Positions 3,532-41,266 of a stretch of DNA of 64,000 nt are shown here, piece by piece. This DNA comes from Hemileia vastatrix (lineage: Eukaryota > Basidiomycota > Pucciniomycetes > Pucciniales > Zaghouaniaceae): assembly GCA_030280995.1 (NCBI GenBank), contig JASXTE010000008.1, forward strand, positions 186,001 to 250,000, in the 5' to 3' direction. Both the position numbers and the translations under genes were made by a program. Position 1 is the stretch's first letter. Each line of letters opens with the position of its first letter. The notes beneath the pieces were generated by a model, which made no database searches, was not told the DNA's origin, and saw only the letters and a program-made list of their open reading frames with translations.

Positions 3532-3535
3532 AAGA

Positions 3536-8490: not shown

Positions 8491-8559
8491 TAAAGTAGCA
8501 TAAATAAACTAAAAAGATGGGTAAAAAATGATAAATAATGAGGTCAGTGGAAGGTGTAG

Positions 8560-14350: not shown

Positions 14351-14530
14351 GCATGAATGAGTGAGGGGTTAGACATTTGAAAATGGTAAGAAAAAGAAAA
14401 AAATACACCTTGATAAAAGGGAAGAATAATAAGTAAAGAGAAAGGTAGTTTTAGGAATCTGGAAGGATAAATGCATGATATAAATGCTATGATATGCATT
14501 ATGAAATAAAAAAAGTGAAATTTGGAAAAA

Positions 14531-16167: not shown

Positions 16168-16411
16168 TATTTTGAGTTATGAAGTGTTATTCTGTGGAGT
16201 TCTGTGTATGAATGGGATGATGCAGACAAATCAATCAAATGGGACTTTATGGTGAAATCAGCACTTTTGGTTGAGATAGTGCAGATTTGAGTGAAATAAG
16301 TGACTTATTTCATTTTTAAATCCACCAGTGTTGGGGATAGTGTGTTTTGGAAATCTGCACTTAAATCAGTATTGATTTTTAGGTGTGGATTTTCCAGAAC
16401 TGACACCCCCT

Positions 16412-21682: not shown

Positions 21683-21997
21683 ATTAGGGGGTATCAATGT
21701 TGACCAATCTACAGTTAAATTAATTGCAGATAAAAATCATTATACCCCAATTATTTTCTGCAATTATTTTCGCTAAAAGTTGGGTTATTAGACCTTTTAC
21801 ATGTCAATTTTCACCTCAATCTGACATTTTTATCTCCAATTTTTCATAACCACATCTTGGACAACTTTCTGGATGTGCCAGCCTCCCTACCTTACTGCGC
21901 ACTCCCATCCTGTCTACTCATTCTATCTGTTCAAAACCCCTCCCCATCTCATCTATTTATTTCTTCTCCTTTTCATCTTCAAATAACCCAACATTCC

Positions 21998-23351
21998 TCA
22001 TCATCATAGATCTTCTCAAAGACAGCCTTCCCCCAGTTGTTCTTCAAATCCCATTACTCCCTCTTTCTCCCGCTCAGCTGAACAATAAATGACTTTTAAA
22101 CTAAAAAAAGACGATCATCTCATACTTATCAACTTGCTAAAAATAAAAACTAAATATGATTCTTGTTTTGGTACTGAGAATGCAACTAAATTAGGGCAGC
22201 CCCCTGCATCAAAAGTCAATGGCTATCTTCTAATGGCCAATGAATTACAAAATAAGACAAAGGGAAGGATTTATCTTTTGCCTAAACAGATGTCTGAACA
22301 TTTTAAGCATTACCAAGCCAAATACAAGAAGGAAAAGACTCTATCATTTTCTACTGGTTTTGGTATTACTGACATCAATATGAGTAAGGGCATAAAAATC
22401 CATAGATGATAAACTTGAATCTCTATGTCCATACTTTAAAGAGATGGATACTATTTTTGGATAGCAAGCTGATGTTAATCCTGCCAACATGTTTGATGGT
22501 GAAGATTCTATCTCCAAAAAAAATTTTAAAAGAAATATTTTCCCATCCTCTTCATCCACTTAAGCCTCTCCTGTTCTAAATTCAACTAATCTAGGTAGCT
22601 TTCCAATAAATACTTATGGTGATATAAGCCAACATGATCCCACTCCAGTGAGTTTTTATTTCTTGTCTAGTTGTTTTATTTTTTTGTTTTTCAAAAGGGT
22701 AATAAAGAAACCCAGGTTCCTCAAGCAAGTGAGTATGAAGGTAGCATCAATGATGAAGTGGAAAATGTTACATCCAAAAAAAATAAAAAACCATCAACTA
22801 CTTTGAATTTTAACAGTCATAGAAAGCAAAACAGAGAGAGTTTTTCCCAAACCCCTTTTTCTTCCATTGATGACTTTCTGGAAAAAAGGTGAATCTGGTA
22901 AGTGATAGCATACCTCTTAATAATTACGTGATCTTTTCTTCTCTTTTTTTTAATATTCCTTTTCACTCTAGGTAAAGTTAAATTTGCAAGAGATACTATC
23001 AACTTTCAAAAGAAACAATACAAGCTCTGTTTACAAAGGGATTATAGGGAAAAGACTTGGAAGTGAAGAAATTTGAGCTTTCTTTACAAATGGATGAGAG
23101 GGCACATGACTTGGTGGAGAATAGATTCAAGCTTTCTTTAAAGAGGGATGAGAGGGCACATGATTTGGAGGAGAAGAAATTCAAGATAAAGAAAGAGGAG
23201 AAGGATCTTGAGTACAAATTCCTATTGGATCAAATAAAACTAAGTATCAACTTGAAGAAGGTTTAAAAAAGAAATATTTCTTTAGATATTGTGATAAAGC
23301 TAATAAATCTATTGAGGAAATTGAACACTTAATGATAATCATTGATAACTA
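21998..23351 (+). pseudogene. Harbinger ORF1, Myb/SANT-like with coiled coil (second copy)
   Basis: The best stretch (22089-22409) has LLKIKTKYDSCFG, then GYLLMANELQNKTKGRI, HYQAKYKKEK and STGFG. This is the DNA-binding half typical of ORF1 proteins that partner Harbinger transposases. Later exons are 22680-22895 (KKNKKPSTTLNF) and about 22985-23351. The last encodes Lys/Glu/Leu-rich repeats (KFELSLQMDERAHDL, RFKLSLKRDERAHDL), likely a coiled coil for dimerisation. Donors near 22895 (GGTAAGTG) and acceptors near 22974 fit short introns. Frameshift at about 22400 and stops at 22561 and 22892 suggest it is inactive. It runs towards the minus-strand Tet-like gene. Confidence 0.65.
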
Positions 23352-24110
23352 GTTTTTTTATTTCATTTACAAAGTTTTCTTGATAGAATGCATTAAACCT
23401 AACAATCAATCCTTGGAACACACTCCTCACTGAGATTTCAAACATTTTTTGCAACATTTTAGATTATTTGTTTGTTTGGTTAAATTAATTTTGTTTTCTT
23501 TCTTTTTGGTGATAATTTCATATGCACCGACTTTTTAAAGGTCTTGATTCTAGATAATTTTATTTTGAAAAATTTGAAAAACTCATACATTTTTTCTTTT
23601 TAACATTCAAATCATTAAATTTACTTTCTAGATACAGCTAAGTCAACAAAACTCTAGATCTGTTTTAAAAATTTAGCAATAACCTTCCCTGCATTTTATT
23701 GAAGTAAGGGGTGGGCATCACCAAAATTTTTCTAAGTCATCAATTTCACATGTCACATTTGAAAATTTGGCAATACCCTCCCCTGAATTTTATTGAAGTT
23801 AGGGGTGAAAATCACCAAAATTTAATATGATTACATAAATTAATATATATATAACTAATTTATATCAATATCTTTAATTTTAAAGTCATGACAATTCATC
23901 CCACCAAAATGTAGACCAAGTTTAGAAACTAAGTTTGGGAATTTCCAGATGTATAGGCAAGATGAACCCCATGAAACAATTTAATTTTATCATGATTATC
24001 ATTTATACAACTCAGAGTTTTTGGCCCATTACTTTATTTTAGGAATTTGAAATATAAGAGTTATTTATAAAACATTTATTAAAAAATAAAAAATATTTGA
24101 TCACTCTACT
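23352..24110. repeat. Harbinger tandem repeats and spacer
   Basis: Two or three units of the GAAGTAAGGGGTGGGCATCACC repeat at 23670-23820 are followed by AT-rich sequence. The whole block is shared with 5885-6600 and 13795-14245. It separates the convergent ORF1 and Tet-like genes; no gene was seen. Confidence 0.6.
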
Positions 24111-24115
24111 AATCC

Positions 24116-25238
24116 TTATAAAGTTTTTTTATATCTGTTAAACTTACCTTCTTTTTTTACCTTGGTTATTTGGTAAATTAATTTTTTACTGATTTGAAAA
24201 GAACATCCAAAATGTGTGAATTGTTGACAAGATTCCAAGCCATGTAGAGCTTTGGTTGTTTGATGATGCTCCTGAGAAGAGTTCAAAATTGTTTCAATCA
24301 CACCATTTCCCAAACCAAAATCAATCAGGCACTAATGGTCTGGAAAATATAAGACATGTCCTTTGAGTTTAGCTGGAGATGGTATATGTTGGCAAGTTAT
24401 CAGATTGATATATGAAAAATTCCAAAAGTAAGATAATAGGTGTCATTTATATTGATATAAATCTTATTATGGAATCCTTAATGAGTAATAATAACATTTG
24501 AAAATAAAAGATATTTGTGGGTGATATCTTCCCATTTGGAGTCACACCAATTTGGTATTCTAACTTTGGTTTCAAGTTGATGATTTTTTTCAAAAGCTTT
24601 ATTACAGAGCTTTTTGAGTCAATGAGCAAGAAAAGAGTTAAAGGATGGTAGAGTGTCCCCTAAGTGAAAATCTTCATCTTTTTGAGCTTTAGTGATATTC
24701 TTGAGCAATGAACATATGCCTATATAAATGAAATAATTGAAATGATATTAAGAATGGAAAAAAAATTTTAGACATACTAAGAGAATATCCTTTAACAAAA
24801 CCTGGTCTCCAACCAAATCCAATCATGATACCACCCAACAAATTCGTATTCCTTATAGGTAAGCGAACCAAAGCTATTTGATAATGAGTTATGATAAGAT
24901 CTGAGAGTTGATGAAAAGATTCATCTTTTACACCATCAAATGAATGAACTTCCAAAATGAATCGAGCCTTATAAGTATTACTGATAGCTGCAACAACTCG
25001 ATCATCTCCAAATTTGGTTAAATATTTGATATCTTCTGGTAATTTTTTTGGATATTGATATTTTTTATCTACTTTAGTTTTATGAAAAAAAATGTTTGGG
25101 ATATGACAAAAATAACTTTCACAGAGAATTTTTTTTTTCAGATATATTTTCTTCTGATAAAACTGATAATCTTTAATATTTTTGATGATTTAAATGATGA
25201 ATTTTTTTTTCAGATATCTTTTCTTCTGATAAGACCAA
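24116..25238 (-). pseudogene. Tet-like 2OG-Fe(II) oxygenase, C-terminal main part
   Basis: The minus-strand reading starts beside the retrotransposon and goes through KKLPEDIKYLTKFGDD, then LGGIMIGFGWRPGF. A 58-nt intron follows (24777-24720, GTATGT to TATATAG), and the second exon resumes in frame with KNITKAQKDED. Further on are a decayed HxD region (YININD, then LTFGIF at about 24440), GHVLYFPDH in another frame, and ALHGLESCQQFTHFGCSFQI with SKKL (24230-24150). The same order and the same phase-1 intron occur in the gene at 58384. This is the family fold of Tet/JBP-like enzymes that oxidise 5-methylcytosine or thymine. Iron-binding residues are damaged and several stops are present, so the copy is inactive. 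Its N-terminal part is at 37719-37945. Confidence 0.65.
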
Positions 25239-26608
25239 TGTGGTGTTCCAAATCTGGGTAGGCTACTTAGGTGAAAATTTGATTGGACCTTGGTTGGAAT
25301 AAAATCATGGTGTTAGCAGGTTTTAATTTGGTTGAAGGGAGTTAACTGGTTTTTTTTGAGTGGATTTATGGTGATTTTTGGATGATTTATGGTGATTTTT
25401 AGGAGGATTTATGGTGTTTTGGAATAGATATATGATGGTATTCCTATTTTTATTTGATGGTTTCATGGATTGGGTATTGGTTTTGCTGGATTTTCTAGGG
25501 CTCTCTTGGTATTTTTGGTGGATGCAGTGTGCTCATGGAGTAGCCATTTTTTTTTCTTCTGGTGCGCTCTGGTGCGCTCCGGTTTGCTCCAGTGATTTTC
25601 TGGTGAAAAAGCGAAGTCACTGTGGCAAAGTTGGTCATTGTGGCAAATTTTGGTCATTGGTGCAAAAAGTCTGGGCACTGTGGCAAAGTTTGGTCACTGC
25701 AGAAAAGTCTAGGCACTGTGGCAAAGTTGGGTCACTGCAGAAAAGTCTAGGCACTGTGGCAAAGTTTTGTCACTGCAGAAAAGTCTGGGCACTGTGGCAA
25801 AGTTTGGTCACTGTAGAAAAGTCTGATCACCAGTGCAAAGTTTGGTCACTGTGCCAAAAGTTTGGCTATTGTGGAAAAATTTGGTTAGAAATTTATTATG
25901 CTTACTAGATCAATAGTTTATTGTAGATCATATGCATGTAGCATATTTTTGGAAAGTTCTGGAGCAGGAGAATCATATGGGGAGGAGTGAATCTTAGTCT
26001 TCTACATTTTTTTTGTCTTTTAGTTTCGATAATAAGGGTCTTTTTTGATAATTAACAATAATTAAAATATAACAACAATTATAATAAAAAATATCAACAT
26101 GTAGGGTACCATTGGATAGCTCTCATCCTTGGTGACTCAAATTTATTTCTTTTCTTATAAAATTTATTAAATAAAAGTATAATAAAGAACACTCTTTAAT
26201 TTTGGTGGGTAACTGGGTAAATCTGGGGCAGACCTTTAATAAGGCAACTTTGAACAGATCATCCCGAGGGTAGTTTCTGGGGTACTTTACTGTACTTTTC
26301 AGTCTCTGGGGAAAGTGTTGCGGCTTGTTCTAAGTATTTGCTGTGACTTGTATCAGTGTAATCTGGTATTAGGTATTTGTTTTGGGGGTGTAATCATTTA
26401 TTGCACTTATTTTTATTTCTATATTATAGGTTTCCAACACTTTCAAAGTCTTTATCTCAGATTTTCAACTTATCCAACTCTTCAAGCAGATCTTCAAGCT
26501 TAGTTAATTGAATCTTACATTTACTTAGAGGGACAGGGATTTTTTTTTGTTTTTACAACTCCCTTGGATTCTGCCTGCAGCAAGGTGAATGTAGGAGTAT
26601 ACTCTACA
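25239..26608 (+). repeat. Family A 5' LTR
   Basis: 1370 bp, with about 270 bp of internal repeats (25610-25880) made from AAGTCTGGGCACTGTGGC and AAAGTTTGGTCACTG. Ends with ACTCTACA followed by the primer binding site. Confidence 0.9.
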
Positions 26609-26612
26609 TTTT

Positions 26613-26629
26613 TGGTGCCCAACATGGGG
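26613..26629 (+). other. Primer binding site of family A
   Basis: TGGTGCCCAACATGGGG begins four nt after the LTR. It differs at three positions from the site of the minus copy. The matching tRNA was not identified. Confidence 0.65.
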
Positions 26630-26921
26630 TTTGAATTCTCTAGCTTCTGAAGAAACTTACTTGTTGGACTTCTGGATTTTGGTTTTCTGGTTGTTAGATT
26701 TTGATTGGTTGGTTATTAGGTGATTCTGGTAACTGGCTGAGCCAGTACAAGATCTGTGGTAGTAGGGATCTAGGTATATGGCTTAACACTTGCTAGATCT
26801 GTTGTTTTTTTTTGTTTGTTGTTTTATCCTAGTAAAGGGCTGAACCCTTGTAGGATATTGTCGGTTTTCTGGTAAAGGGCTGAACCCTTACAGATTTTAT
26901 TGGTTTCTGGTGTTTTTTGGG
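26630..26921 (+). other. Family A leader
   Basis: Untranslated leader with no gene. It holds two copies of a small hairpin, AAGGG-CTGAA-CCCTT (about 26834 and 26874), a possible packaging or dimerisation structure. The role is inferred. Confidence 0.5.
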
Positions 26922-29374
26922 ATGTCGTATCCATCTGGTGCTGGTGTTATTGCTGCTGCTGCTGATGGTGTCAGGCCTTCAGTAAGGATTAAAACTTGGG
27001 ATGGGCCCAAGTTTGTTGGTGATGATGTTAAGTGGTCTTTGGGCAGATATGAGGCTGCTGCTGGAATTGATGGGGCTTCAAATTTACATATGGTGAAGCA
27101 GGTTATCTTTTTCATTGGTGATAGGGAAGTTGAGAAGGAGATTACTGGTATGGAGGGTTATAAGACTAGGGATTGGAAAAGGCTTAGTAGGGAAATGGTG
27201 GACAAATGGGGAGTCAGATATTCAATGGTGGATTTAAATAAGGCTGTTGGAGAATGGCAAGTGCAGGGTGGAATAACTTCTTTGGTGAGTTATAGGAAAT
27301 TTGTTGGTAGTTTTGAAACTGTGGTGGAATATCTGGTGGAGGTAGAGGAATTGGCTCATGAAAATGCAGTCAAAGATTTATTTTGGTCCGCTTTTGGGAG
27401 GGATGTTAGGATTGATGTGTTAAAGGAGTTGTCTAGGAAGGGTTTGATGAAAAACTTACCTAATAGGGAACAGAAGTTGCCTGCTGTTAAGGTGGTTAAA
27501 GAATTGGTGGAGTCTCACCTCAAGCTTTTGGCTGTGGACAGTTATCAAGAAACCTGTACACAGTATGTCAGCAAAATTAATGAAGTTTTGGCTGATAATA
27601 GCTATATTATGAAGAAGGCTCAGGAGGCAAGAAAAGCTCAGTTGGGGAAACCGGTTTCTAAGGTGGATGAGAATGTGGATAAGGAGATGGTGGATCAATT
27701 GGCTGACTTAACAAAGAAATTGAAAATTTTTGTTCAAGAAACTCAGAAGGCCAGCAGGGTTTCAGAATCTTTCTCATCATCTTATTCAAGTAGAGGTTAT
27801 GATAGGAGGAATGGTGATACTGTTAATGTTTGGATTTGTTCCTACTTCAACCGGAAGGGACATAAGTCTAATGATTGTTGGTCTTTGAATAGGGATCAGG
27901 CTGCTGGTAGAGTAAAATTTGATGAAAAGGTATTTAGGTTTCCTAATGGATCTTTTATCGAGCCCAGTGAAGGTCAGGATCCTTTGTATTTGGTGAGGAG
28001 AGATAGTATGGGTGAAAAGAGAGCTAGGTTTGAGGAATTGCCTACTGAGGCTTCTTATGGTACTGGAAATAATTCTGGAGATAAGGGGAAGGAAAAAGAG
28101 GTTAGTAAGACTACTTTTTCTACTTCATATGGTAATTTGGAGTTAGTAAAGGTTGTTAAGGCGGATGGTGAGTTTATGGCTGGTGTATATGATGTGGAGG
28201 CTTCTAGGAGGGCGGCTGCTTCTAAAGCTAGAAGCAGTATTTCTAATCAGTTAAGGTCAAGAAGTGGAAAGGCGGATTCTAAGAAGGCTGAAGATCCCAA
28301 GAAGATTTATACGCCTGAAGAGATTTGTCAGATGCATAAGGGGATAGCTGATATGGGTCCCCCTAGTTTTGGTGCTTTTGATCTTAATGGTGATCCTATT
28401 CCTTTGGATGATGGTCCAGATACAGAGGAGGATGTGCCTTTGGCTTATTTGCCTAGGCCAAGTTCTTGTGTGCCAATAGAGGGAGTTAAAGCTACTGTTG
28501 ATGGTTCTGGTTTAGTCTCTGTGGATGGAAAGGTTCATGGGGATAATTCTAATGTGGAAATGTGTGATGTTGTTGGTAATGTGGGACCTCAGGAGTCTTC
28601 TAGGGCAAAGGTTGCTAGGAGTAAGGCTCATTATGAGAGGCCAGTGGTTTCTGGTCAAGAGAATGCTATGGATGTTGTTTTGGGAAGGGTGAATCAGCTT
28701 CAGATTCCATTATCTTTGGGTGAATTGTTCACTATTAGTCCAGCCCTTGCTGAAAATCAGAAGAAGCATTTGACTAGGAGAAGAGTGGCTACTGGTGAGG
28801 TGGAGTATATGTGTGAAAATGTGGAGAAGTTTGGTAAAGAGGTGGAGACTCATTTTTCTACTCCTTTAGGATATTTGGTGGTTTCTTTAAATGGCAAAGA
28901 TGTGAAGGCATTGGTTGATTCAGGCTCACAAATAAATTTAATTTCATTGGATCAAGCAACTAGTCTGGATTTGCCAATTAAAGCTGGTTTTGGAGGAAAT
29001 CTCAGAGGGATAGGTGGGCATGCTACTGAGTTGATTGGTAAAGCAGAGCATGTAAAGTTAGGTGTAGGTGGAGCTGTTGGAAAAGTTCATATTTATGTGT
29101 CTAGAGGAGCTGTGAAGACAGTTTTAGGAGGGCCATTTTTGATGGATTTTGATTCCAAGATTGGTTATCAGTCTGGTGTTGGGATTAGTCTGGAGATTAC
29201 TGGGGAGGATATGAGGCGGTTACATATGAGGTTGGCACCCCCAGGTGATGAAGGTTGGGAAACTAGGCCTGGTGTTTCTGCATCTTGTCAGTGTTGCACT
29301 TTCATTAGGAAGAGAAAAGACTTGAAGTCCTCTTCTGGTGTATTTGAGGATAGTGGTGATCATTTGTTGGTGAC
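26922..29374 (+). pseudogene. gag-protease of family A, long open frame cut by a solo LTR
   Basis: The ATG at 26922 (MSYPSGAG) is chosen because the other copy starts at the same point. The capsid-like region covers about residues 1-210. Next comes a zinc-knuckle region near 27836 (CSYFNRKGHKSNDC) in which the second Cys of the CCHC box has become Phe. A Ser/acidic linker follows, then an aspartic protease with VDSGS near 28915. The frame is open for over 810 codons, unusual in this decayed window. The solo LTR enters at 29375; without it the frame would end within a few codons (TAG at about 30199). Its tail is conserved with 1165-857 of the minus copy. Confidence 0.8.
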
Positions 29375-30180
29375 TGTCAAGGTACCCTTTTGGTCTAGAA
29401 GATTGGCATGAAGTTTTTACGAGGATTTTGAAGGTTTAAATGGACTCTCAACAAATTTGTACGTATCTCTTAAATCTAGGATGATTATTTTATTCAATTT
29501 AAAAGAGGTATGATTAAAATATTGATATAAATTATATATTAGAGTTACGTATTGTAAATACTAATGCTATAGATTATAAGAATAAGTGTTTGATTTGTTA
29601 ATGTTTTTATAAAGTAATGTAGTAAAGGAATGATTAAAAAACAACCAAAAGAGAGGCCTTATATAGGCAAAGGAGAGACAAAGCACGGAAATCAAATTCA
29701 AAAAACAGTAGTATGAGAGAGAGAAAAGAATATTCCAGAAGGAGTATTTTCAAATAATAAAGTTGTTCTAAAAAGAAGGCGTCAAAAAGATGTATTTACA
29801 GAGTATGTCAGAAATACATCAATTTATTTAATATTTACTGTAGAAGTCAATTCTAAATAAGAAATTTGAATTTTTTGTATATATTTAATATTATATGTAT
29901 ATTAAAATCTTATTTTAACTTAAAATCTATTTTTTAATATAAATTTTTATTTTTTCCAACCTGTCAAATGAGCACGGTGTTAGAGAAAAATATAAGGGAC
30001 AATTTTATATTTTAATTTTAATTATTTATTTAATTTTATCATTCTTTAATTAGTTTATTTATTATAACTAATTTTAATGTAACTAAATTATAATTAAATA
30101 ATAATTAAAATGATAATGTGCGGCTTCATCCAGTAAATAATTAATTATTTCACTGGGTAAGTCTAGTGGCCTGGCTGACA
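29375..30180 (-). repeat. Solo LTR nested in family A
   Basis: 806 bp, reverse complement of the solo LTR at 18118-18923 with few differences by eye. Flanked by GTGAC (29370-29374) and GTGAA (30181-30185), a duplication with one mismatch. The minus copy of family A reads straight through this point (about 805-825), which gives the empty site. Confidence 0.9.
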
Positions 30181-30185
30181 GTGAA

Positions 30186-31652
30186 CCTTCTTTTTTAGGG
30201 TAGATAGGACTGATCAGTCTAGTGCTGTAATCTCTCCTCAAGAAGAAATCCTGGATTGCAGTAGGTCAGCTCAAGTGGAATTTCCAATTTTTGTAGATAA
30301 TATTACTTTATTATGTCAATTTTTGTCAAATTATTTGTCTGGTTTCAGTTTTTTTTCAAGTTTTTCTCTCAAGTTATTTCAAGTTCTGAAGATGTTTTAG
30401 GGAAAATTTTGTTGGAGCAGAAAAGTTTTGGAGTGGTGGCAAATGGGTCTAAAAGTAAGTCCTCCCAAGTGTGCACCGCTAGGGTTTCTTCTACACCTTT
30501 CAAAAACATTACCATGGCCACACATGTAAGCATTAAGGACACCCCTGGTTGTTTTTCTAGATATAGCAAGAAACCATTAGACAATTTTCAAGAAAAAATC
30601 TCAAGATAACTGAAAATCAGCAAAAAAAATATTTATGTAAAGATGTTGTCAGTAGGAAGGAGCCTACTTGGTTTACTGGTGGCCTCCAGCAAGAGTATAA
30701 ACTGCACAATAATTCTCAACTAATGTCTCATTCTGATTTCTCTCATGAAAAATTGAAAATGCAAAATAAATTTCTGAATAACAAAAAGCAAGAAAAAGTG
30801 TTTGTTGGTTTGGGTTCTGTGATGTGTGGTGATGATTTGGTTGGTGGTTTTGTTAGCAACACTTGTGTTTCTGTGTCCAGTTGCAGAAGAGAGTTACTCC
30901 AGCATGAAGATAAAGGAATGACTTTCTAGCTTCTGGTGGGGCCGTCACTGCAGTGCAGGACCTATGTGAAGGTAAAATGGACTGTTTCTGTGATGAGAAT
31001 CCTGAACCTAATGATGATATTTATTTCCCTAGGGGTATTTTTGATTTGGTTGCTGATTTGGGTACTGGTCAAGTGGATGAGCAGAATTCGGTACGGAAAA
31101 GTTTTGGAGTGGTGGCAAATGGGTTTAAAAGTAATTCCTCCCAATTGTGCACTGCTAGGGTTTCTTCTACACCTTTCAAAAACGTTAACATGGCCACACA
31201 TGTGAGCATTGGGGACACCCCTGGTTTTTTTCTAGGAATAGCGAGAAAAAATTGGACAAAAATCAAGAAAAAAATCTCAAGATAAATGAAAATCAACAAA
31301 AAAATTATTTATTTAAAGATATTGTCAATAGGGCTGAGCCTAATTGGCATGCTGGTAACTTCCTGCATGAAGATAGACTGCCAAATTTTCATACTTTTGA
31401 TTATTCTTTTCATATTTATAAAAATAAAAATCAAATTAAAAATTTTCTGCATAATGAAAAACTAGATAACAATATAATAATTCTGTTTCTAAAAACTTTA
31501 ATAAGTCTTTTTCAAAAAATAAAAATAAAAATTAAACTGATAAAATTTCTTTATCTGATTCTAATAATTCTTTTTGTAAAAATTCTGTTACTCTTAATTC
31601 TGATGAAGATGAAGATTCTGTTGATGAAAGGAGCTCAATTCCTCAAGTACAT
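30186..31652 (+). pseudogene. Family A region between protease and RT, with a direct duplication
   Basis: Only short, shifted open frames are present. A block of about 190 bp is repeated (30415-30605 and 31090-31280), each with SFGVVANG and CTARVSSTPFKN. Asn/Lys-rich AT-biased sequence follows (31400-31620). The role is unknown; it may be a linker that precedes RT in this family. Confidence 0.55.
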
Positions 31653-34600
31653 GTGGAAGTGGAAGCAGCAAAATATAAGAAGGCTGCTGTGAAAGTTAAA
31701 TCAATCAATGAAGTGCTTCCAACTGGATTGAATTCGTCGTTGAAGAGACCACTTTCTTCAAGAGATCCATATGAAACTCCTTTAAGAAAGAATCCACCTG
31801 AATTTTCTGAAACGTCAAGAATTACTTTTGATAGGATTGGTGTTTTAAATTTTGGGCCAGAGGGTTGGTTATCTGGTGAGGAGATGAATTTGTTGCTGGA
31901 TTTGATGGTGTTTAGGGAGAAGGCTATTGCATTTGTGGAAGAAGAGAGGGGTGTTTTAAAGCATTCTTATGGTGAAACTTACAAGATTCCAGTTGTTTGT
32001 CATGAACCTTGGCTACTCAAGCCAATTCCGATTCCTGCTGCTCTTAAAGATGATTATATTGAAGTTGTTAGGGAACGGATTAGGACTGGACTTTATGAAC
32101 AATTGTCATCAAGTTATCCAAGTCCAGTTTTCTGTATCAAGAAGCCTAATGGAAAGCTTAGAGTGGTTCATGATCTTAGGGAATTGAATAGGGTGACTAT
32201 AAAAGATGCTGGTATTCCTCCAAGTGCAGAGGAATTTGTTGATGCTTTTTCTGGAAGGGTATGTTATAGTTTGGGTGATATTATGGGGGCTATGATGAAA
32301 GAGAATTACATCCGGATTCAAGACCTCTGACAACTTTTGATACTCCTCTTGGACAGTTACAGCTGACTAGATTACCTCAAGGTGCTACTAATTCTGTTTC
32401 TGTTTATCAAGCACAAATGGCTTTAATTCTTCAAGATGAAATTCCACAGTATGCTGGTATATTTATTGATGATGGTGGAATTAAAGGTCCTTCAACTGAT
32501 TATGATAATAAAGTGTTTGAGGAGAATCCAGGTATTAGGAGGTTTCTTTGGGAGTATGCAGTAACTTTCGAAAGGATTTTGTTTAGGATTGAAAAAGCTG
32601 GTTTAACTATTTTGGGTTCTAAATTTTCTTGTTGTGTTCCAGCTTTAGAGATTCTTGGTCATGTGGTGTGTAGGGAAGGCCAACTTTTTTCAAAGAAGAA
32701 AGTCAACAAAATTCAATCTTGGCTGAGATCTAGAAACACTACTGAATTTAGAAGATTTTTGGGAGTATGTGTTTATGTTAGGATGTTTATTAGGGAATTC
32801 TCATTATTGGCTGCTCCATTGAAAAGGTTAACTAGGAAGGATGCTGATTGGGATTGGGATGAAGCTTATGAAGAAGCTTTTGTTAAGTTGAAGAAGGTGG
32901 TTGGTGAAGATATTATTCTTCATAAGTTGGATTATGGTGAAGGAGCTGGTAGGATTTATTTATCTGTTGATTCTAGTCAGCTGGCTGCTGGTGCAGTGCT
33001 TTCTCAGATGGATAAGGGTGGATATATGAGACCAGTTAGGTATGAATCTGTAGTTTTTACTGAGGTGGAATCAAGATATTCACAACCTAATTTAGAACTC
33101 TGTGGTGTGGCAAAAACTTTAAAAAAACTTCAAAATATCTTATGGGGTCAACATTTTGAACTTAAAGTGGATGCTAAATCTTTAATTCAGATGGTTAATT
33201 CACCTAGTTTACCTAATGCTCCAATGACTAGGTGGGTAGCTTTTATTCAACATTTTTCATTCGATTTAGTGCACAGGCCTGGAAAATCTTTCACTATGCC
33301 TGATGGATTGTCAAGAAGACCACCTACAGTAGATGATTCCGATTCAGAAGAGTTTGATGAAGATATACCTATAATCAAGGCCAGTACCAAGGGTGCTGAG
33401 GACTTTCCATACCTCTCCCATGAGGTTAAGCTGGCTGGTTCTATTTTTGTTGAATTTGATGAAGTTGATGATCTAGTTGATCATGAGGCTTTTGTAGATG
33501 AGGATGGTGTGGTTTTTTGGGATAATTGGAATATGGTTAATGGTGTTTATGTTTGGGATCTGAAGGTGGATAGTGGTAGCATGGAAAAATGTTTGAATGA
33601 GGTGGATTATGTGAATTTCAGAAAACAGCCAAATTCTCAGATAATGATTGCTCATTCACAAGTGGGAGATATTAGGGACAGGGAGGTTCCTTTGGATGTT
33701 ATATTATTGGATTTTTCTGATGAAATTTAGGGCCAGACTGGGTTTTATTTTTTAATTGTGAAATATTTTTTGTCTCTGGGAAAACCAGAAGAATGTGATG
33801 AAGCTGAATGGGTGGCTATCAAAAAGAAGTCACCTGGTTTTTATTTGTCTGGTAGAAGGTTGATGAAAAGAAGAAATCCAAATCCTCAAGTTGTTGTATC
33901 TCAAAGAAAAGGTGATGAATTGGTGATGAAATCTCATCATGAAGATTTAGGGCATAGGGGCTTTGGAGAAACTTATAAGCATATTGCTGATAGATTTTGG
34001 TGGCCTGGAATTAAGATGGCTGTTATATCTTGGGTTCAGTCATGTGAAGAATGTCAGAGAAGAAGTTATTTAAGGCCAAAAGAACCTGGAAATGCTACTG
34101 GTGAAAATACTATCTTTGGACGGGTTAGTTTGGATGCTGTTCACATCAAGGAAGGTAAATATAAGTACTTGATTGTGGCAAGGGATGATTTTTCTGGTTG
34201 GGTTGAGGCTGTCCCTCTTATTAGTTTATCTGCTAAAAATGTAGCAGAATTTTTGATGAAGGAATGGGTGTATAGTTACGGTGTTATGAAGTTGGTAACT
34301 GTTGATGGCGGCTCTGAGTTTGGTTCAGAATTCAAGGAAGCTGTTTCAAAAATTGGCTCAAAGGATTGGGTGGTGACCCCATATTATCCTGAAGCAGAAG
34401 GAATGGTTGAAAGGGGGCATCAAGTTATTAAGGATGCTTTGGTTAAAATGTGTGGAAAAAGTGCTGAAAAGTGGAGGCATTATTTAACCCTTGTTTTATT
34501 TGCTGACAGGATTACCACCAAGATGACAACTGGTTATTCTCCTTATGAATTAGTTTTTGGTAAGAAAGCTGTTTTACCGGTTGATCTTGAAGCTGAATCT

Positions 34601-35000
34601 TATCTTGGTGTTGATTGGGATGTAGTCAAAACTACTTAAGATTTGCTCTGTGCTAGAATTCAACAGTTAGAAAAGAAGGAGGAATATTTGGAGAAGGCAT
34701 ACAATAGGATGATCAAGATCAGGGATCAGTCTGTCAGGTATTGGGATCAAAGGTTGGCTCATAGACTCAGGAAGCCTTTGAGGCCTTGTGATATGGTGTT
34801 GGTGTATAATAGGAGTTTAGAATGTCATTGGGGGAAAATGTTTGCTGATAGATGGAATGGACCATATAGGATTAGAGAACATGTTTATGGTGGTTCATAA
34901 GTTTTGAAAGAACTGGATGGTGTTGTCTTAAAGAAGAGGGTAGCTGCTGATCAAGTGAAGAAGCTTTACCCTAGGGGCACAAAGAGTGCTGAAGTTTGAC
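31653..35000 (+). pseudogene. pol of family A: reverse transcriptase, RNase H, integrase
   Basis: RT starts with the SSYPSPVFCIKKPNGKLRVVHDLRELN region (about 32105-32185 at its core). A one-base loss in a G run at about 32284-32288 breaks the frame at motif A (GDIMG). The frame continues with FDTPLGQLQLTRLPQGATNS and the catalytic FIDD (about 32463). RNase H has SVDSSQLAAGAVLS near 32965. After an in-frame stop at 33728-33730 come an HHCC zinc finger (about 33930-34050) and the integrase triad: SLDAVH, TVDGGSEF and EAEGMVERGH. In-frame stops at 34637-34639 and 34898-34900 precede the C-terminal part. The gene is recognisable throughout but dead. Confidence 0.85.
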
Positions 35001-36319
35001 TCCAAAATGAGGATAAACTACAACATCAATCTTTTAGTAAATCTCACAGTCTTTCGAAAAATCAATCATTACTTCAATTTTAAAATTTTAATATGTGGTG
35101 AAAATATGAGGGGGAAACAAATTTTGTTAGGAGTGTTCACAGGGGAACCTTCTAGATTTTATATTGGCCAGTTTGGGAGTAATTGATGAGTTGGAAGCTC
35201 TACTCACAATTACCCCATAATGTTTGTTTCCAACCCTTCTCTGTTTCTAGTTGAATCCTGACTTTGCTTTCTGTTATATAGGTAGTCCTCTATGACTATA
35301 AACTGGAACCTTATGTCGACACAGCACAATCTTTTGGAAGTCTGGATTCAAGAATTTTGTTTTTTTTCATTTTTTTGTTGTATTGGGGTGGATGATCACT
35401 TGTGGTCTCCAATCATTTTTACAAATTGGAGGGAGCCCACCCAGTGATCATTAGTTTGTTTCCTTGATTTTCATTAAATTATCATTTTTCAAATCTTCAA
35501 ATTTTCAAAATTTAATTTTAAAAAAAAATATTTTCAAAAAAAAAAAAAATTATTATTATTTTCAAGAATAATTTGTTTTCAAAAATTTCTTTTATTTTAT
35601 ATTTTTAATTTTTCTTTTCTGTGTATCCACAATCAAGGTGCACTTTGATGTGGGTATGATGTCAGGGGTTCGGCTCATTCAAATGGCTGGGGGACATCTT
35701 TTATTTTTTTATTTATCTTTAATTTTATTTCTCTTATTCTTTTATTATATATTTATTTTATTTATTCTGCTAGTCCATCAAGACTTAAAACTGAAATTCT
35801 TTTCAAGATCATTTATGATTTGTCCTAAACTTCAAGACCGTGGAAAACTGAAGACGTCAATAAAACTAGGAATTATAATGGTCAAGATTTGAGGATGATT
35901 TCTTTTAGTTAGAAGTGTTCATTGGGGAACCTTCTAGATTTTATATTGGCAAGTATGGGGGTAATTGATGAGTTGGAAACTCTATACACACTTACCCCAC
36001 AAATTTTGTTTATATGCTTTATTGTTTATAGATTGATCTCTAGCATTGGTTTTGTGATGCAGGTCTCAGTGGAGATGAGAGCCCACTCTCTTAATTTTTT
36101 TTTGTTGGAGGTGAATAGTAGAGGAGTTTGGAGGACCTCATAACGGTGTCTAGATCATTGCAGCTCTAGCTCAGTAGGGTTTGAAGCCTACTCTTTCATA
36201 CTCAGCGGATTGAAGCATCAAAAATCAAGTGAAGTCAGCTTTAGAAGCAAAATTTTTATTGAAATGATGGTTGAAAAGTTTTTTATGTGATTCAGAATGG
36301 AATGGGGACATTCCATATT
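35001..36319 (+). other. Family A 3' non-coding region with a direct repeat
   Basis: 1.3 kb between pol and the 3' LTR with no gene. A segment of about 90 bp occurs twice (35120-35205 and 35908-35990), sharing GGGGAACCTTCTAGATTTTA and TAATTGATGAGTTGGAA. Confidence 0.6.
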
Positions 36320-36329
36320 GGAGGGAGGA
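36320..36329 (+). other. Polypurine tract of family A
   Basis: GGAGGGAGGA lies directly before the 3' LTR, the usual site for plus-strand priming. Confidence 0.75.
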
Positions 36330-37718
36330 TGTGGCATTCCAAATCTGGGTAGGCTACTTAGGTGAAAATTTGATTGGACCTTGGTTGGAAGGAAATAATG
36401 GTGTTAGCAGGTGTTAATTTGGTTGAAGGGAGTTAACTGTATTTTTTTTGAATGGATTTATGGTGATTTTTGGAGGATTTATGGTGATTTTTTGGAGAAT
36501 TTATGGTGTTTTGGAATGGATATATGATGGTATTCCTATTTTTATTTGATGGTTTCATGGATTGGGTATTGGTTTTACTGGATTTTCTAGGGCTCTCTTG
36601 GTATTTTTGGTGGATGCAGTGTGCTCATGGAGTAGCCATTTTTTTTTCTTCTGGTGCACTCCGGTGCGCTCCAGTTTGCTTCAGTGATTTTCCGGTGCAA
36701 AAGCAAAGTCACTGTGGCAAAGTAGGTTATTGTGGAAAAGTTTGGTCATCCGTGCAAAAAGTCTGGGCACTGTGGCAAAGTTTGGTCACTGCAGAAAAGT
36801 CTAGGCACTGTGGAAAAGTTGGGTCACTGCAGAAAAGTCTAGGCACTGTGGCAAAGTTTTGTCACTGCAGAAAAGTCTGGGCACTGTGGAAAAGTTTGGT
36901 CACCGTAGAAAAGTCTGATCACCAGTGCAAAGTTTGGTCACTGTGCAAAGTTTGGTCACTGTGCCAAACGTTTGGCTATTGTGGCAAAATTTGGTTAGAA
37001 AGTCATTATGCTTACTAGATCAATAGTTTATTGTAGATCATATGCATGTAGGGTATTGTTAGAAAGGTCTGGAGCAGGAGAATCTTATGGGGAGGAGGGA
37101 ATCTTAGTCTTCTACATGTTTTTTGTCATTTAGTTTTGATAATAAGGGTATTTTATGATAATTAACAATAATTAACATATAACAACAATTATAATAAAAA
37201 ATATCAACATATAGGGTACCATTGGATAGCTCTCATCCTTGGTGACTCAAATTTATTTCTTTTCTTATAAAATTTATAAAATAAAAGTATAATAAAGAAC
37301 ACTCTTTAATTTTGGTGGGAAACTGGGTAAATCTGGGGCAGACCTTTAATAAGGCACCTTTGAACAGATCATCCCAAGGGTAGTTTCTGGGGTACTTTAC
37401 TGTACTTTTCAGTCTCTGGGGCAAGTGTTGCCGCTTGTTCTAAGTATTTGCTGTGACTTGTATCAGTGTAATCTGGTATTAGGTATTTGTTTTGGGGATG
37501 TAATCATTTATTGCACTTATTTTTTTTTCTATCATATAGGTTTCCAACACTTTCAAAGTCTTTCTCTCATATTTTCAACTTATCCAACTCTTCAAGCAGA
37601 TCTTCAAGCTTACTTAATTGAATCTTACGTTTACTTAGAGGGACAGGTATTTCTTTTTGTTTTTCCAACTCCCTTGGATTCTGCCTGCAGCAAGGTGACT
37701 GTAGGAGTCTACTCTACA
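36330..37718 (+). repeat. Family A 3' LTR
   Basis: 1389 bp, aligned along its whole length with 25239-26608. Internal repeats lie at 36700-36990. Ends with CTCTACA next to Tet-like gene sequence. Confidence 0.9.
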
Positions 37719-37945
37719 CCTATTATCTTTAATTTTTTTGAATGATTTAGAAGAAGAAATTTTTTTTTCAGATATCTTTTATTCTGATGAGACTGATTAA
37801 CATTAATTTTTTTTGATGATTTAGAAGATGATTGTATTGAAGTTGATTTTGAAGAAGATGATAGAGATGATAAAGATGAAGATGATGAAGAGGATAAAGA
37901 TAAAGATGATAGAGAAGTAAGGGGTGAATCTAAAGAAGAAGACAT
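37719..37945 (-). pseudogene. Tet-like 2OG-Fe(II) oxygenase, N-terminal part
   Basis: The minus-strand ATG at about 37945 starts a Ser-rich region (MSSSLDSPLTSLSSLSLSSS), followed by Lys/Ser repeats of the form EEKISEKKI. The same repeats are found at 25110-25238 on the other side of the retrotransposon, where the gene continues. The insertion thus fell in a repetitive low-complexity region ahead of the catalytic domain. Start and frame are tentative because of frameshifts among the repeats. Confidence 0.5.
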
Positions 37946-38449
37946 TTATTTGATCTGAAAAAAATTTAAATGTCAAAAAAAAATTCAACACATATTTTTT
38001 TAAAAAAAAACTCACGTAATAATATCTTCTAAAATAAAATTTAAAGCAATATACTTTTAAAAAAAATTTAAAAAAAAATTTAAAACAAAAAAATTTTTTT
38101 AATATTTTCAGTAAAAATTATTACAAAAAAAAATACAAGAGAAAACCTGAAGCTTGGTTATAAAAAACCTTCACAGAAAATCCTGTCAAAATAATAAAAA
38201 GAATAAAAATAAAAAATAAAAAAAATTCTGTAAAAGAAAAATCAGAACAAATAAAATTAAAAAAAAATTAATTCAGTAAAATTATTTGTAAGAAAAATTA
38301 AAAATTAATATCTAAACCTTTTTTGTTTTGCAATTTATAGGGAAATTTCTTAAGAGAATGTAATAGTTTTTTTTTCTAAAAATCTGCCAAAAAAAAAAAG
38401 ATACTTTTTAGTATGTTTTTTAAAAAATAGATAACCCCTCTTTAACTCC
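37946..38449. other. A-rich spacer without a visible gene
   Basis: Long A and T runs upstream of the Tet-like gene start. Nothing else was seen. Confidence 0.4.
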
Positions 38450-39130
38450 CATTACAGTCTCCTTTCCCCCCCTTTCTTTCTCTGAAATCACCTTTAAACT
38501 CCCTCCCTCCTTTCCTCAAAACCACCCTCAAATCCCCTCCTTTTCTGTCTCAAAATCCCCCTGAAACCCCCTCCTTAATTGCTACAAAACCCCCCCAAAC
38601 TCTCCCCCCTTAGTTACCTTAAAACCCCCCATTTTACCCCTCTTTATATGTCCAAAACCCCCCTCCGTTCCCCCCCTCTTTAGCCGCTTCAACCCTTAGG
38701 TCCCAACCCCCCCCCCTTACACTCCCCTTAACCCTTCTCTAGCGCCTCCTCCTCCTTAAAAAACAATTGCTAACAATTGTTTGTTAACTAAACGATTTCT
38801 AACAAATGTTCGTTAAGAAGGAGGGGGGGTAGAGGTGGCTAAAGGGAAGTGGAAGGGGGGGAGGGGACCTAAAAAGGGGGAAGGGGGGTTTTGAGGCAGT
38901 TGAAGAGAGGAGAAGGGGGGAGTGTTGAGGCACCTAAAGAGAGGGGAAGGGGGGGTGATGAGGCACCTAAAGAGAGGAGAAGGGGAGGTCTTGAGGCACC
39001 TAAAGAGGGGGGAAAGGGAGATTTGGGACAGGCAAGGAGAATGAAATAAGGGGGTCTTGAGGAAGGTAAAGAGAGTGGAGAAGGAAAGACTTGAGGCAGT
39101 TAAAGAGAGAGGAAAAGGGGTGAAATGAGG
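38450..39130. repeat. Pyrimidine tract followed by purine tract (imperfect inverted repeat)
   Basis: About 300 bp rich in CCCCCTT/CTCC (38450-38760) is followed by about 310 bp rich in GGGGGAGG/AAAGAGG (38818-39130). The centre, AACAATTGCTAACAATTG, and the flanks CTCCTCCTCCTTAA and TTAAGAAGGAGG are inverted repeats. Confidence 0.8.
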
Positions 39131-39626
39131 AAGCTAAAGAGGGTGAAGGAGAGAAAAAAAAAGAAAAAAAAAGAGAAAAAAGAGAAAAAAAAAGTTAATC
39201 TAACCTTGAAAATAAAAAAAAGGACTTACAAAAAAAAAAACATAAAAAAAAACCAAAAAAAAAACCAAAAAAAAAGAAAAAAAAACAAAAAACCAAAAAA
39301 CCAAAAAAAAGCAAAATAAAAAAATTCATGATTAGCAAATAAAAAAAAAGACTTACCTGGTGAGATGAGTTGAGAAAATAAAAGTAACAAAAATATTTGA
39401 GTGATGTTTGAGGAGAGGATGAAAAGGATATGAGTGATGAAAGAAAAAAAAATCACTGACAAAATATGTGATCTCATGTTGAGCTGGTGAAAGAAAACCA
39501 ATGAGCCATCCAAAAAAAGATCTTCACCGTAAATTCCAAAAAAAAAATGAATATGCAACAAACCAAAATACCAAACCAAGTGAATGAAGTACACAAAGAG
39601 GAAATTTGGAGAGTAAAAAAAATAAT
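39131..39626. other. A-rich tract downstream of the transposase
   Basis: A/G- and A-rich low-complexity sequence to about 39350, then sequence shared with 15630-15790. Its apparent Lys- or Phe-rich open frames are artefacts. Confidence 0.5.
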
Positions 39627-40938
39627 TTAAAAGGATGGTAAAGAGAAATGTTGGAGAGTAATAGGCATAATGACAGAGCGCATGCTGGTTGAATGAATGT
39701 TTTGTGATTCAAGGGAGGGGAGAGCCAGTGCTGGTTCTGGATACTCTTCTTCATAAAGATCATTCCACTCATCCTTTAAATCCGCTAGGATATTGTGGAG
39801 TATAATGCAAGTCATGATCCGATGATTTGCAGTTTTAATCTCATATTTTTTTTGAAACTGGATTCTGAACTCCCAAAGTCTAGAAAATGGTCCCTTTAAA
39901 ATACCTATAGCATGTTCAATTTGTACTCTTGGTGGGAAAGGTGATATTTAATTTTAGTTTTGGGGTCATTTTCTAAGGTTGCACTATGGAAAGCATGTAT
40001 AATGTACTTCCCACTTGCATATTCTGAGTCTGTAAGGAGGTACTGAGATTCGTCAAAGTATGAGTCAGCGGTTTGACGAATCCTCATTCTTTTGAACAGG
40101 TAAGAGTTGTGACATGAACCAGGGCAGCCACTTTGAAAAGCAATAAATTTTTTATTGACATTGCATACAAGTTGAACGGCAATAGAGTATCTAGAAAGAA
40201 GATAAAAATTTAGTTTATGAAGGATGAGAAATCGGAGAAGATTTTTAAGAAACCTTTTTTTGTGATCAAAATAATGGTTGCCATCATGAGCAGGCTTGTG
40301 ACTCAAAGGTATAGTTGTGCCATCAACAAATCCTACACAACCAGGGAGACCTTCAGCTTGCATTACTTGAGAGGATTCAAGTTGCTGTTCTGGAGTTGGC
40401 CAAGCAAGTGTTTGAGACTTGAGGAAAAGGATAGAAATCATACAGCGCTTGGTGTATAATATCACAATACCATATTCTATGTTAAAGAGATTATCCAAAC
40501 GTCTTACAGCAGCACCGTTTCCATTTGAGCCAAAACGACATAGTGCAACAGCATGTTTGATGGCAGGATCACACTGTTTGTTATGGGAATTGTTATGAAA
40601 GATAGTTTGATTGGAGATGAGTTGATAAAGTTTGAAGAAAGAAACGGGAGAAGTTCTAAAAAGTTGGGTGAAGTTTAAATGAGGAATGTTGAAAATGGAG
40701 GCCAGATCATATTGGGGATCATTATAAAGATTTGGCCCCCTGGTGATGATGTAACACTTTTTGAAAAGAAAACACGTATAAACTGAGCATCTTCCAAATC
40801 AGAGTCAGATTTATAGTAATGAACTAAAAGAAACGTAATAGCATTAATTGTTGAGTGAAGTAGCTTCCTAGTAGAGAGGTGTTTCATTGTTTCTGGTGGA
40901 AGAATTATGTGATGAGGGAAGTGGGAATTCACCGCCAA
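39627..40938 (-). pseudogene. PIF/Harbinger DDE transposase (HARBI1-like nuclease)
   Basis: Minus strand, start near 40938. An N-terminal region leads to LCRFGSNGNGAAVRRLDNLF (helix-turn-helix-like, about 40540) and then the DDE nuclease. First Asp is in GFVDGTTIPLSHKPAHDG, second in LLTDSEYASGKYI, and Glu in QIEHAIGILKG (about 39920). A short intron of about 60 nt is visible near 40255-40190 (donor after HKK, acceptor TTTCTTTCTAG), restoring a KRYSIAVQ-type join. Two frameshifts, at a G run near 40735 and near 39935, break the gene. The C-terminal end carries TANHRIMTCIILHNIL and an acidic tail. Cleavage and joining of Harbinger termini is the family role; this copy is inactive but recent. 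Confidence 0.85.
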
Positions 40939-41266
40939 ATGTGCAGTTGGGGTGTGTAGATAGAAAAAAAACTTAAGTTTTTTCTACTAAAATTAAGTAC
41001 CATAGAGTGAGGAAAGACTTAAGGATGGCATCAGCAATTATGAGTCATGTGAATTTCTTGCAAATCCATCATGGATGAGATGAGTTTGGGATCAGAAATT
41101 ATGAATGTAAATTTGGGTATAAGAGGCAGGATAATGCATTATCATGGATTGCTTTTCCACTAGCCCTGGGGCTAGTGGATAAGAATCTTCCCCAATTAAT
41201 AATGGCTGATCCTGGAAAAAAAATTCCTGATCCCTAATTGTGGATCCCTGAAAATTGATACCCCCT
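40939..41266. repeat. Harbinger right end beside the transposase
   Basis: Includes the transposase upstream region, a subterminal hairpin (about 41155-41185, arms CCACTAGCCC and GGGGCTAGTGG) and the terminal inverted repeat. Matches 8560-8920. Confidence 0.8.

What the first reader, a model, noticed from the sequence alone, without database searches (positions are those of the whole stretch)
21686..41266. A Harbinger-type transposon that carries a Tet/JBP-like dioxygenase gene
Between matching terminal inverted repeats lie ORF1 (+), a Tet-like 2OG-Fe(II) oxygenase (-) and a HARBI1-like DDE transposase (-). The oxygenase is split by a retrotransposon, but its parts on both sides share the same Lys/Ser repeats, and the catalytic part shares KNITKA, the HxD-region layout and SKKL with the gene at 58384. 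A third Harbinger copy (12749-16411) keeps the tail of the same gene at the same place, which argues for stable cargo and not a chance neighbour. Tet/JBP genes in basidiomycetes are known as passengers of KDZ-type transposons; a link with PIF/Harbinger is, as far as I know, not established. A DNA base oxidase encoded by the element could counter host methylation.
Basis: partly seen in the sequence, partly recalled or inferred. Interest (0 to 1): 0.88.

Follow-up and report, generated by a model that had tools for sequence, protein, structure and literature searches.

The report
Harbinger transposons sharing a TET cassette
In a 748-million-base genome (probably a rust fungus), a cut-and-paste transposon present in high copy number carries, in 8 of 10 long copies read from one contig, all or part of a gene of the TET oxygenase family, a block that appears to have been exchanged between two related transposon families and that would likely help the element escape DNA-methylation silencing; the pairing of TET genes with such transposons was already published in 2025.

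Summary
Confirmed, with corrections. 21686-41266 is a PIF/Harbinger-type transposon: exact 13-bp termini, ATT on both flanks, DDE_Tnp_4 transposase, Myb/SANT-like ORF1. It carries a decayed Tet-like oxygenase split by an LTR retrotransposon; better-preserved relatives exceed the Pfam cut-off for 2OG-FeII_Oxy_6. The link is stable: 8 of 10 long copies read keep oxygenase sequence, and 25 of 43 exact transposase tags have an exact oxygenase tag just downstream (chance 0.46).

The pairing is published: Kojima 2025 describes TET+ Harbinger elements ("PHISTA") in rusts, with 2-bp TA target duplications and a third protein lacking Myb/SANT. Here the duplication is 3 bp (AAT/AAT or ATT/ATT 106, AAT/ATT 3) and ORF1 looks Myb/SANT-like, so this seems another Harbinger lineage.

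Newer is the modularity. Backbones 95-99% identical hold a full oxygenase, a catalytic exon alone, or none (apparently a derived lineage, 95 junction tags). One compact 3.7-kb element with the second family's termini carries a first-family-type catalytic exon. The HxD...H iron site is conserved; the usual co-substrate arginine is histidine in 40 of 42 rows. The anti-silencing function is inferred, not shown.

The parts
21686..41266 (.). TET-bearing PIF/Harbinger-type element, family A, with nested LTR retrotransposon
   Evidence: exact termini, ATT flanks, ORF1 / oxygenase / transposase in the order of 7.1-7.3-kb relatives
21686..21698 (+). left terminal inverted repeat AGGGGGTATCAAT; flanking ATT at 21683-21685
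41254..41266 (-). right terminal inverted repeat; flanking ATT at 41267-41269
21990..22689 (+). ORF1, Myb/SANT-like, frame broken in this copy
   Evidence: tblastn to L014 ORF1, 75% and 63% in two stretches; Myb_DNA-bind_4 matched, below cut-off where shown, by 12 of 12 aligned ORF1 members
24119..24723 (-). catalytic exon of the Tet-like oxygenase, decayed (stops, HxD lost)
   Evidence: 82% and 71% identity in two stretches to the L011 catalytic exon
24761..25189 (-). 3' part of the oxygenase N-terminal exon
   Evidence: tblastn to L053, 62% over 117 aa; 76-82% to L009 and L012, 58% to L024
37712..37945 (-). Ser/Lys-rich start of the oxygenase, cut off by the retrotransposon
   Evidence: frame; similar by eye to the start of the 389-codon frame of L053
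25239..37718 (+). nested LTR retrotransposon, LTRs about 1.4 kb and 93.9% identical
   Evidence: gag-pol-like ORFs by eye
39630..40983 (-). HARBI1-like transposase gene, frame broken in this copy
   Evidence: Pfam DDE_Tnp_4 for 39908-40798; first frame by eye against L018; relative in L018 with a 454-codon frame, E=3.5e-25
3937..8920 (.). second family A copy, ATT on both flanks, internally rearranged, no oxygenase exon found
   Evidence: colinear with L016 only at 1-372 and 3515-6129
12749..16411 (.). third copy, family B termini, 3663 bp, the size class of the compact elements; degenerate
13747..14364 (-). oxygenase tail and 3' flank kept in the third copy
   Evidence: 81-82% to family-B-type copies, 76-80% to fetched family A copies, but 82.9% over part of it to window copy 2
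14734..15870 (-). linker of the catalytic-exon-only cassette type in the third copy
   Evidence: 79-80% to L016 and the six like it over about 1.1-1.2 kb; repeats D19

Best explanation
This is a high-copy PIF/Harbinger-type transposon family whose internal block, between the transposase gene and ORF1, carries in most copies read a Tet-like 2OG-Fe(II) oxygenase gene or its catalytic exon, a block that appears to be exchanged between related elements and likely helps them escape methylation-based silencing. Shown: the termini, the 3-bp A(A/T)T target duplication, the three-gene layout, the conserved iron-binding motif, the excess of synonymous change between families, and three states of the internal block (full gene, catalytic exon only, none) inside 95-99% identical backbones. 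Inferred from the sequences: that a catalytic exon of family A type now sits in a compact element with family B termini (one read; 13 more by tag and position) because of exchange or recombination. Inferred from TET biochemistry in other organisms: that the enzyme oxidises methylated cytosine on element DNA and so keeps transposase expression or terminus binding possible. Compact elements would depend on transposase supplied by others.
For: Layout: all 10 exact-terminus pairs of 5-9 kb among the first 100 listed places (contig C2) were fetched; 8 of 10 have oxygenase sequence at the same place and strand, 2 of 10 do not. Co-occurrence: of 43 exact transposase tags on C2 up to 27.13 Mb, 25 have an exact catalytic tag on the same strand 1.5-4 kb downstream, against a chance mean of 0.46 and maximum of 4 in 1000 shifts; 1 more has only the N-exon tag, 6 the TET-minus junction, 11 none. 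Genome tags with up to 2 mismatches: transposase 2171, catalytic exon 3903, N exon 1603, TET-minus junction 95; reversed-pattern controls 0. Oxygenase-anchored regions: 6 of 6 have ORF1 and 5 of 6 transposase. Family: PF20515 E=9.8e-34; the 30 loci cut out for the best PF20515 hits are all relatives of the cargo, 53-93% identical. Constraint: dN/dS about 0.08 between families A and B. Target duplication: 106 same-sense against 3. Swap: L014/L018 against L012/L016; L064, inside a family-B-bounded 3734-bp element, is 90.9-93.7% identical to 13 fetched loci with family-A-type oxygenase and 79.0-79.5% to those of family B type. CpG C-to-T changes are about 14 times other C-to-T changes per site in the six young backbones (32 of 372 against 26 of 4194 sites, summed), as expected if the elements are methylated.
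Against: No expression, methylation or enzyme data. The usual 2OG-binding Arg position is His in 40 of 42 rows, so activity or co-substrate may differ. Seven fetched family A copies show no N-terminal exon, and L064 resembles them at its catalytic exon (only 1001 bases read); such a gene may not make a working enzyme. TET-minus copies (95 by junction tag, 80 exact) spread without the gene, perhaps helped in trans. CpG decay is no lower in TET-plus than in TET-minus copies (7, 4, 9, 4 against 1, 7; too few). Eleven of 43 transposase tags have no exact partner tag; 22 of 36 family B pairs lack the exact catalytic tag, and 9 of 29 exact catalytic tags below 8.744 Mb lie outside exact pairs. The window's own decayed copy is only 80.8% identical to L064. 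DNA methyltransferase hits (8 stretches) lie on contigs C74, C228, C350 and C561 only and could not be read, so a host methyltransferase is not established.
Confidence: 0.72

Rival explanations
1. These are simply more PHISTA elements (Kojima 2025) in another rust: same TET+ Harbinger lineage, nothing new.
For: The TET+ Harbinger families of Pucciniales in that paper also have transposase, TET and a third protein. The ends here could be parsed as TA plus GGGGG.
Against: Paired flanks show a 3-bp duplication: 106 AAT/AAT or ATT/ATT against 3 AAT/ATT (ATT/AAT not counted). ORF1 matches Myb/SANT in 12 of 12 members (weakly, below cut-off where shown), whereas the third proteins in the paper are said to lack it.
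Confidence: 0.35
2. The oxygenase is a passive passenger: once captured it rides along and decays, with no role for the element.
For: Many copies have stops; the window copy has lost HxD. TET-minus and catalytic-exon-only lineages spread too. Within-group dN/dS is 0.33-0.42, not very low.
Against: dN/dS about 0.08 between families A and B; HxD...H is kept in 40 of 41, 36 of 41 and 39 of 42 rows; catalytic tags outnumber transposase tags (tolerances not equal).
Confidence: 0.2
3. Chance neighbourhood: the genome holds thousands of Tet-like genes, so some fall beside Harbinger elements.
For: 10849 first-look PF20515 candidates in the genome, 150 scored.
Against: Fixed strand, spacing and position inside termini; 25 of 43 against a chance mean of 0.46.
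Confidence: 0.01

Closest known systems
TET+ PHISTA (Harbinger) transposons of Pucciniales, Kojima 2025, PMC12730594
   Same: Harbinger-superfamily transposase, PU-type TET/JBP gene as cargo, a third protein, rust hosts, transfer of TET genes between elements
   Different: published TSD is 2-bp TA and the third protein has no Myb/SANT domain; here the TSD is 3-bp A(A/T)T and ORF1 is Myb/SANT-like; cassette states on near-identical backbones and compact elements are not described in the parts read. The sequences themselves could not be compared (supplements not held)
KDZ-type TET+ transposons (Kyakuja, Dileera, Zisupton; Iyer et al. as cited in PMC12730594)
   Same: DNA transposons of basidiomycetes with TET/JBP cargo
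   Different: other transposase family, 7-8-bp TSDs
Canonical PIF/Harbinger (two-gene: DDE transposase plus Myb/SANT ORF1)
   Same: DDE_Tnp_4 transposase, Myb/SANT-like ORF1, 3-bp TSD, very short derivatives of about 0.42-0.45 kb with the same ends
   Different: TSD is A(A/T)T, not the usual TWA (recalled); an extra oxygenase gene
TET/JBP dioxygenases (TET2, NgTET1, CcTET, CMD1)
   Same: HxD...H motif, PF20515 profile match
   Different: histidine at the position of the usual co-substrate Arg (role recalled) in 40 of 42 rows; no PDB sequence hit at E up to 1

Membership tests
PIF/Harbinger superfamily | DDE_Tnp_4-type transposase | tested here: met
   E=3.5e-25 over profile positions 1-158 of 158, L018; window 8.3e-9
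PIF/Harbinger superfamily | second protein with Myb/SANT-like domain | tested here: inconclusive
   12 of 12 ORF1 members match Myb_DNA-bind_4 at E<=1, best 4.4e-4; the scores shown, 17.5-19.4 bits, are below the cut-off of 27; fold at pLDDT 50 uninformative
PIF/Harbinger superfamily | terminal inverted repeats and 3-bp target duplication | tested here: met
   the duplicated sequence is A(A/T)T rather than TWA
PHISTA (Kojima 2025) | 2-bp TA target duplication | tested here: not met
   106 against 3 in favour of a 3-bp duplication
PHISTA (Kojima 2025) | third protein without Myb/SANT | tested here: inconclusive
   weak but consistent Myb/SANT match
PHISTA (Kojima 2025) | place in the transposase tree | not testable with these tools
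TET/JBP (Tet-like 2OG-Fe(II) oxygenase) | profile match above cut-off | tested here: met
   117.6 bits against cut-off 27, L053
TET/JBP (Tet-like 2OG-Fe(II) oxygenase) | HxD...H iron triad | tested here: met
   H 40 of 41, D 36 of 41, H 39 of 42 rows; HxD lost in the window copy
TET/JBP (Tet-like 2OG-Fe(II) oxygenase) | C-terminal Arg that binds 2-oxoglutarate | tested here: not met
   His in 40 of 42 rows, Asn and Tyr in one each; the other Tet-like gene of the window, at 58899, has Arg; the role of the residue, and that it defines the family, are recalled
TET/JBP (Tet-like 2OG-Fe(II) oxygenase) | oxidation of 5-methylcytosine | not testable with these tools
   needs an assay

The most novel reading that the evidence does not exclude
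The TET gene behaves as a selfish module in its own right: its catalytic exon, carried with its own splice acceptor, has jumped between Harbinger backbones and terminus families and persists in compact elements of about 3.7 kb that have shed most or all of the transposase, while a nearly invariant Arg-to-His change points to an altered co-substrate or product, so that these elements would spread a modified form of DNA demethylation in trans.
Probability: 0.2. Interest if true: 0.75.

Novelty: new variant of a known kind. Interest (0 to 1): 0.55.

Why it matters
Transposons that carry their own candidate DNA demethylase make the arms race between methylation silencing and mobile DNA directly testable. 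This genome adds a natural experiment: near-identical elements with a full TET gene, a catalytic exon, or none, in tens to thousands of copies by tag, so methylation, CpG decay and copy number can be compared within one nucleus. It also offers a sequence-level view of how TET genes pass between transposons, which Kojima 2025 inferred from trees and three pairwise comparisons.

Tried and rejected
Protein database: the 385-aa cargo protein had 4448 word-sharing candidates, none at E<=0.001. PDB sequence search of the oxygenase alignment: 0 hits at E up to 1; of the ORF1 alignment: 1 meaningless hit, E=0.086. ORF1 structure from a single sequence: pLDDT 50, not used, no fold search made. PHROGs: 0 of 3 proteins matched. 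The TA-duplication reading was rejected by the paired-flank counts. Host species not identified; one literature search for a 747-Mb rust genome: none of the 8 papers listed (of 103) holds that number. Helitron origin of the TET-minus insert: it has a 22-nt palindrome near its end and repeated end copies, but I saw no CTAG-type end; left open. Co-substrate change as in CMD1 (recalled): one literature search, two reviews listed, not read. Papers: PMC12730594 was seen as abstract and outline, section 3 part 1 of 3, section 3.4, section 4 part 1 of 2, the figure legends, and two passage searches; all others as search listings only. That I found no report of cassette exchange on one backbone, compact copies or the Arg-to-His change rests on the searches (open-licence papers only) and the passages.
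Full report
WHAT IS THERE. At 21686-41266 two exact copies of AGGGGGTATCAAT face each other, both flanked by ATT. Inside, from left to right, are a broken ORF1 (+), the tail and catalytic exon of an oxygenase (-), a nested LTR retrotransposon with LTRs 93.9% identical, the Ser-rich start of the oxygenase (-), and a HARBI1-like transposase (-; DDE_Tnp_4). The terminus occurs 4527 and 4521 times on the two strands against 3 and 3 for the reversed pattern, so the family is large.

IS THE CARGO A TET-LIKE OXYGENASE? The window copy is too decayed for Pfam: its catalytic exon has stops and the HxD motif reads Y.N. Relatives settle it. L053 has a 389-codon open frame, Ser-rich start included; 385 residues of it match PF20515 (2OG-FeII_Oxy_6) at E=9.8e-34, and L011 and L058 match at 2.4e-30 and 1.2e-30. 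A genome search with PF20515 had 10849 first-look candidates, of which 150 were scored, all over the cut-off; 0 of 14 control genomes rang. The 30 loci cut out for the best hits are all relatives of the cargo, at 53-93% identity. The iron-binding H, D and H are kept in 40 of 41, 36 of 41 and 39 of 42 rows, but the position that carries Arg in the other Tet-like gene of the window (58899 onwards) is His in 40 of 42 cargo rows (seven loci that repeat others were dropped, and the row of the 58899 gene was kept out of the count). That this Arg normally holds 2-oxoglutarate is recalled, not from a call.

IS THE LINK STABLE? I fetched the 10 exact-terminus pairs of 5.5-7.3 kb among the first 100 listed places, all on contig C2; pairs further apart, such as the window element, were not fetched. 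Eight of 10 contain the oxygenase between transposase and ORF1 on the transposase strand (L009-L013, L015-L017), two do not (L014, L018). Six regions centred on oxygenase hits elsewhere all have ORF1, and 5 of 6 have transposase; the sixth, L058, shows none in the 3.8 kb fetched upstream. With 28-base tags and up to 2 mismatches, the genome has 2171 transposase, 3903 catalytic-exon, 1603 N-exon and 95 TET-minus-junction tags, controls 0; tolerances across families are not equal, so these are not a direct ratio. On C2 up to 27.13 Mb, where the capped catalytic list ends, 43 exact transposase tags (5 further along the contig left out) were compared with the other tags: 8 have both oxygenase tags, 17 the catalytic tag only, 1 the N-exon tag only, 6 the TET-minus junction, 11 none; chance for the catalytic tag is 0.46 of 43, maximum 4 in 1000 shifts. 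Exact tags miss some: L013 carries the gene but counts as none.

TARGET SITE. For short derivatives in one size range I counted paired flanks: AAT...AAT 46 plus ATT...ATT 60, 106 in all, against 3 AAT...ATT (that pattern is its own reverse complement, so each is listed twice). ATT...AAT was not counted. This is a 3-bp duplication A(A/T)T next to AGGGGG...CCCCCT; a TA duplication would expect comparable numbers. In the fetched long copies 9 of 10 have equal 3-base flanks (L014 is the exception), and of four short ones (L019-L022) 3 of 4.

CASSETTE. Against L016 (catalytic exon only), L014 and L018 (no oxygenase) are 95-96% identical over the left 2.05 kb and 97% over the right 2.15 kb, with an unrelated middle. 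Against L012 (full gene), L014 and L018 are 95.3% and 97.5% on the left and 99.3% and 98.9% on the right. The replacing segment has internal repeats, a 22-nt palindrome near its end and end copies elsewhere, one at window 53608-53722, so the TET-minus lineage looks derived. In seven fetched family A copies (L010, L011, L013, L015, L016, L017, L026; L025 overlaps L011) no N-terminal exon was found. Homology between L016 and L012 resumes just before the ATATAG splice-acceptor-like sequence of the catalytic exon, so that exon seems to have been kept with its acceptor. L062 has an oxygenase only 58% identical to that of L011, in a backbone 79-89% identical to L016 at DNA level.

SECOND FAMILY. AGGGGGTGTCAGT occurs 4375 and 4442 times, controls 0 and 2. 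L059 and L060 show one such end each; L063 is grouped with them by sequence. Their transposases are about 58-63% identical to family A at protein level and their oxygenases 77-78%. Of 36 exact family B pairs at the start of C2, 14 contain the exact catalytic tag, and all 14 are 3.44-3.77 kb long with the tag at a near-constant place; 22 do not contain it. Of 15 exact family A pairs, 7 contain it. Of 29 exact catalytic tags below 8.744 Mb, 20 lie in an exact pair and 9 do not. Five family-B-type copies have the tag only with 2-3 mismatches. The 1001 bases read from inside one compact element (L064) are 90.9-93.7% identical to 13 loci with family-A-type oxygenase, 80.8% to the decayed window copy and 79.0-79.5% to family B type, with one stop in the catalytic frame; in the 30 rows listed, its first 36 bases align only with the catalytic-exon-only class. 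Only this one compact copy was read; its ends are known by position, and its transposase content was not read. The window's third copy (3663 bp) is in this size class and keeps a transposase start, the linker and the oxygenase tail.

SELECTION AND METHYLATION TRACE. Nei-Gojobori dN/dS for the catalytic exon is 0.08 between families A and B (28 and 20 pairs) and 0.33-0.42 within groups; synonymous change between families is near saturation, so 0.08 is approximate. In nine right-hand backbones (L011, L015 and L062 left out), the CpG C-to-T rate against the majority base exceeds the other C-to-T rate in every copy, as expected for methylated DNA, but TET-plus and TET-minus copies do not differ visibly. 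Methyltransferase-family hits exist (8 stretches, contigs C228, C561, C74, C350) but were not read and may be contaminants.

WHAT IS KNOWN. Kojima 2025 (PMC12730594) describes TET+ elements of seven DNA transposon lineages in Pucciniomycetes, among them 15 Harbinger families with TA duplications and a third protein without Myb/SANT, naming the Puccinia lineage PHISTA; it reports frequent TET transfer between superfamilies and proposes escape from methylation or C-to-T hypermutation. What I did not find in the parts of that text I read or in the searches named in Tried and rejected: a 3-bp-duplication, Myb/SANT-bearing TET+ Harbinger lineage, cassette states on near-identical backbones, compact copies, and the Arg-to-His change.

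VERDICT. A real, very abundant, TET-bearing Harbinger-type system; a variant of a kind already in print, with a modular cassette as its more interesting feature. The anti-silencing mechanism is the best explanation but remains inferred.

Noticed in passing
window 58381-59639 (+): A second, distant Tet-like gene (PF20515 E=4.6e-25, Arg kept). It is itself high-copy: 4956 first-look candidates, 150 scored, dozens at 96-99% identity on many contigs, so probably cargo of another mobile element not identified here.
   Followed up: partly
G000 contigs C74, C228, C350, C561: All 8 DNA_methylase (PF00145) stretches of the genome search fall on these four contigs and none on contigs known here to be tens of Mb long, such as C2, C121, C338 or C348; contamination and unplaced host sequence could not be told apart.
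   Followed up: no
window 53608-53722: A 115-bp stretch 92% identical to the hairpin-bearing end of the segment that replaces the oxygenase in TET-minus copies; similar ends occur in L033, L037, L043 and L062. Possibly an uncharacterised mobile element.
   Followed up: partly
short elements of 419-450 bp on C2 (L019, L020, L022) and the matches: Many tiny derivatives share the family A termini and 3-bp duplication (106 in one size range), i.e. MITEs of this family.
   Followed up: partly
window 25627-25895 and 36719-37025: 19-bp tandem repeats inside the retrotransposon LTRs; a related inverted array lies at 9135-9343.
   Followed up: no
window 7880-8450: GGA/GGT-rich tandem array of about 23-29 bp units inside the second family A copy.
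   Followed up: no
window 60428-61078 and 61705-62355: Pair of 651-bp inverted arms, 96% complementary, each made of about 82-bp repeats.
   Followed up: no
L010 and same-spacing copies on C2: Six of 43 exact transposase tags have the catalytic tag at 1.53-1.56 kb, the spacing of L010, whose transposase has an internal deletion of about 0.6 kb: a recurrent, probably non-autonomous subfamily that keeps the catalytic exon.
   Followed up: partly
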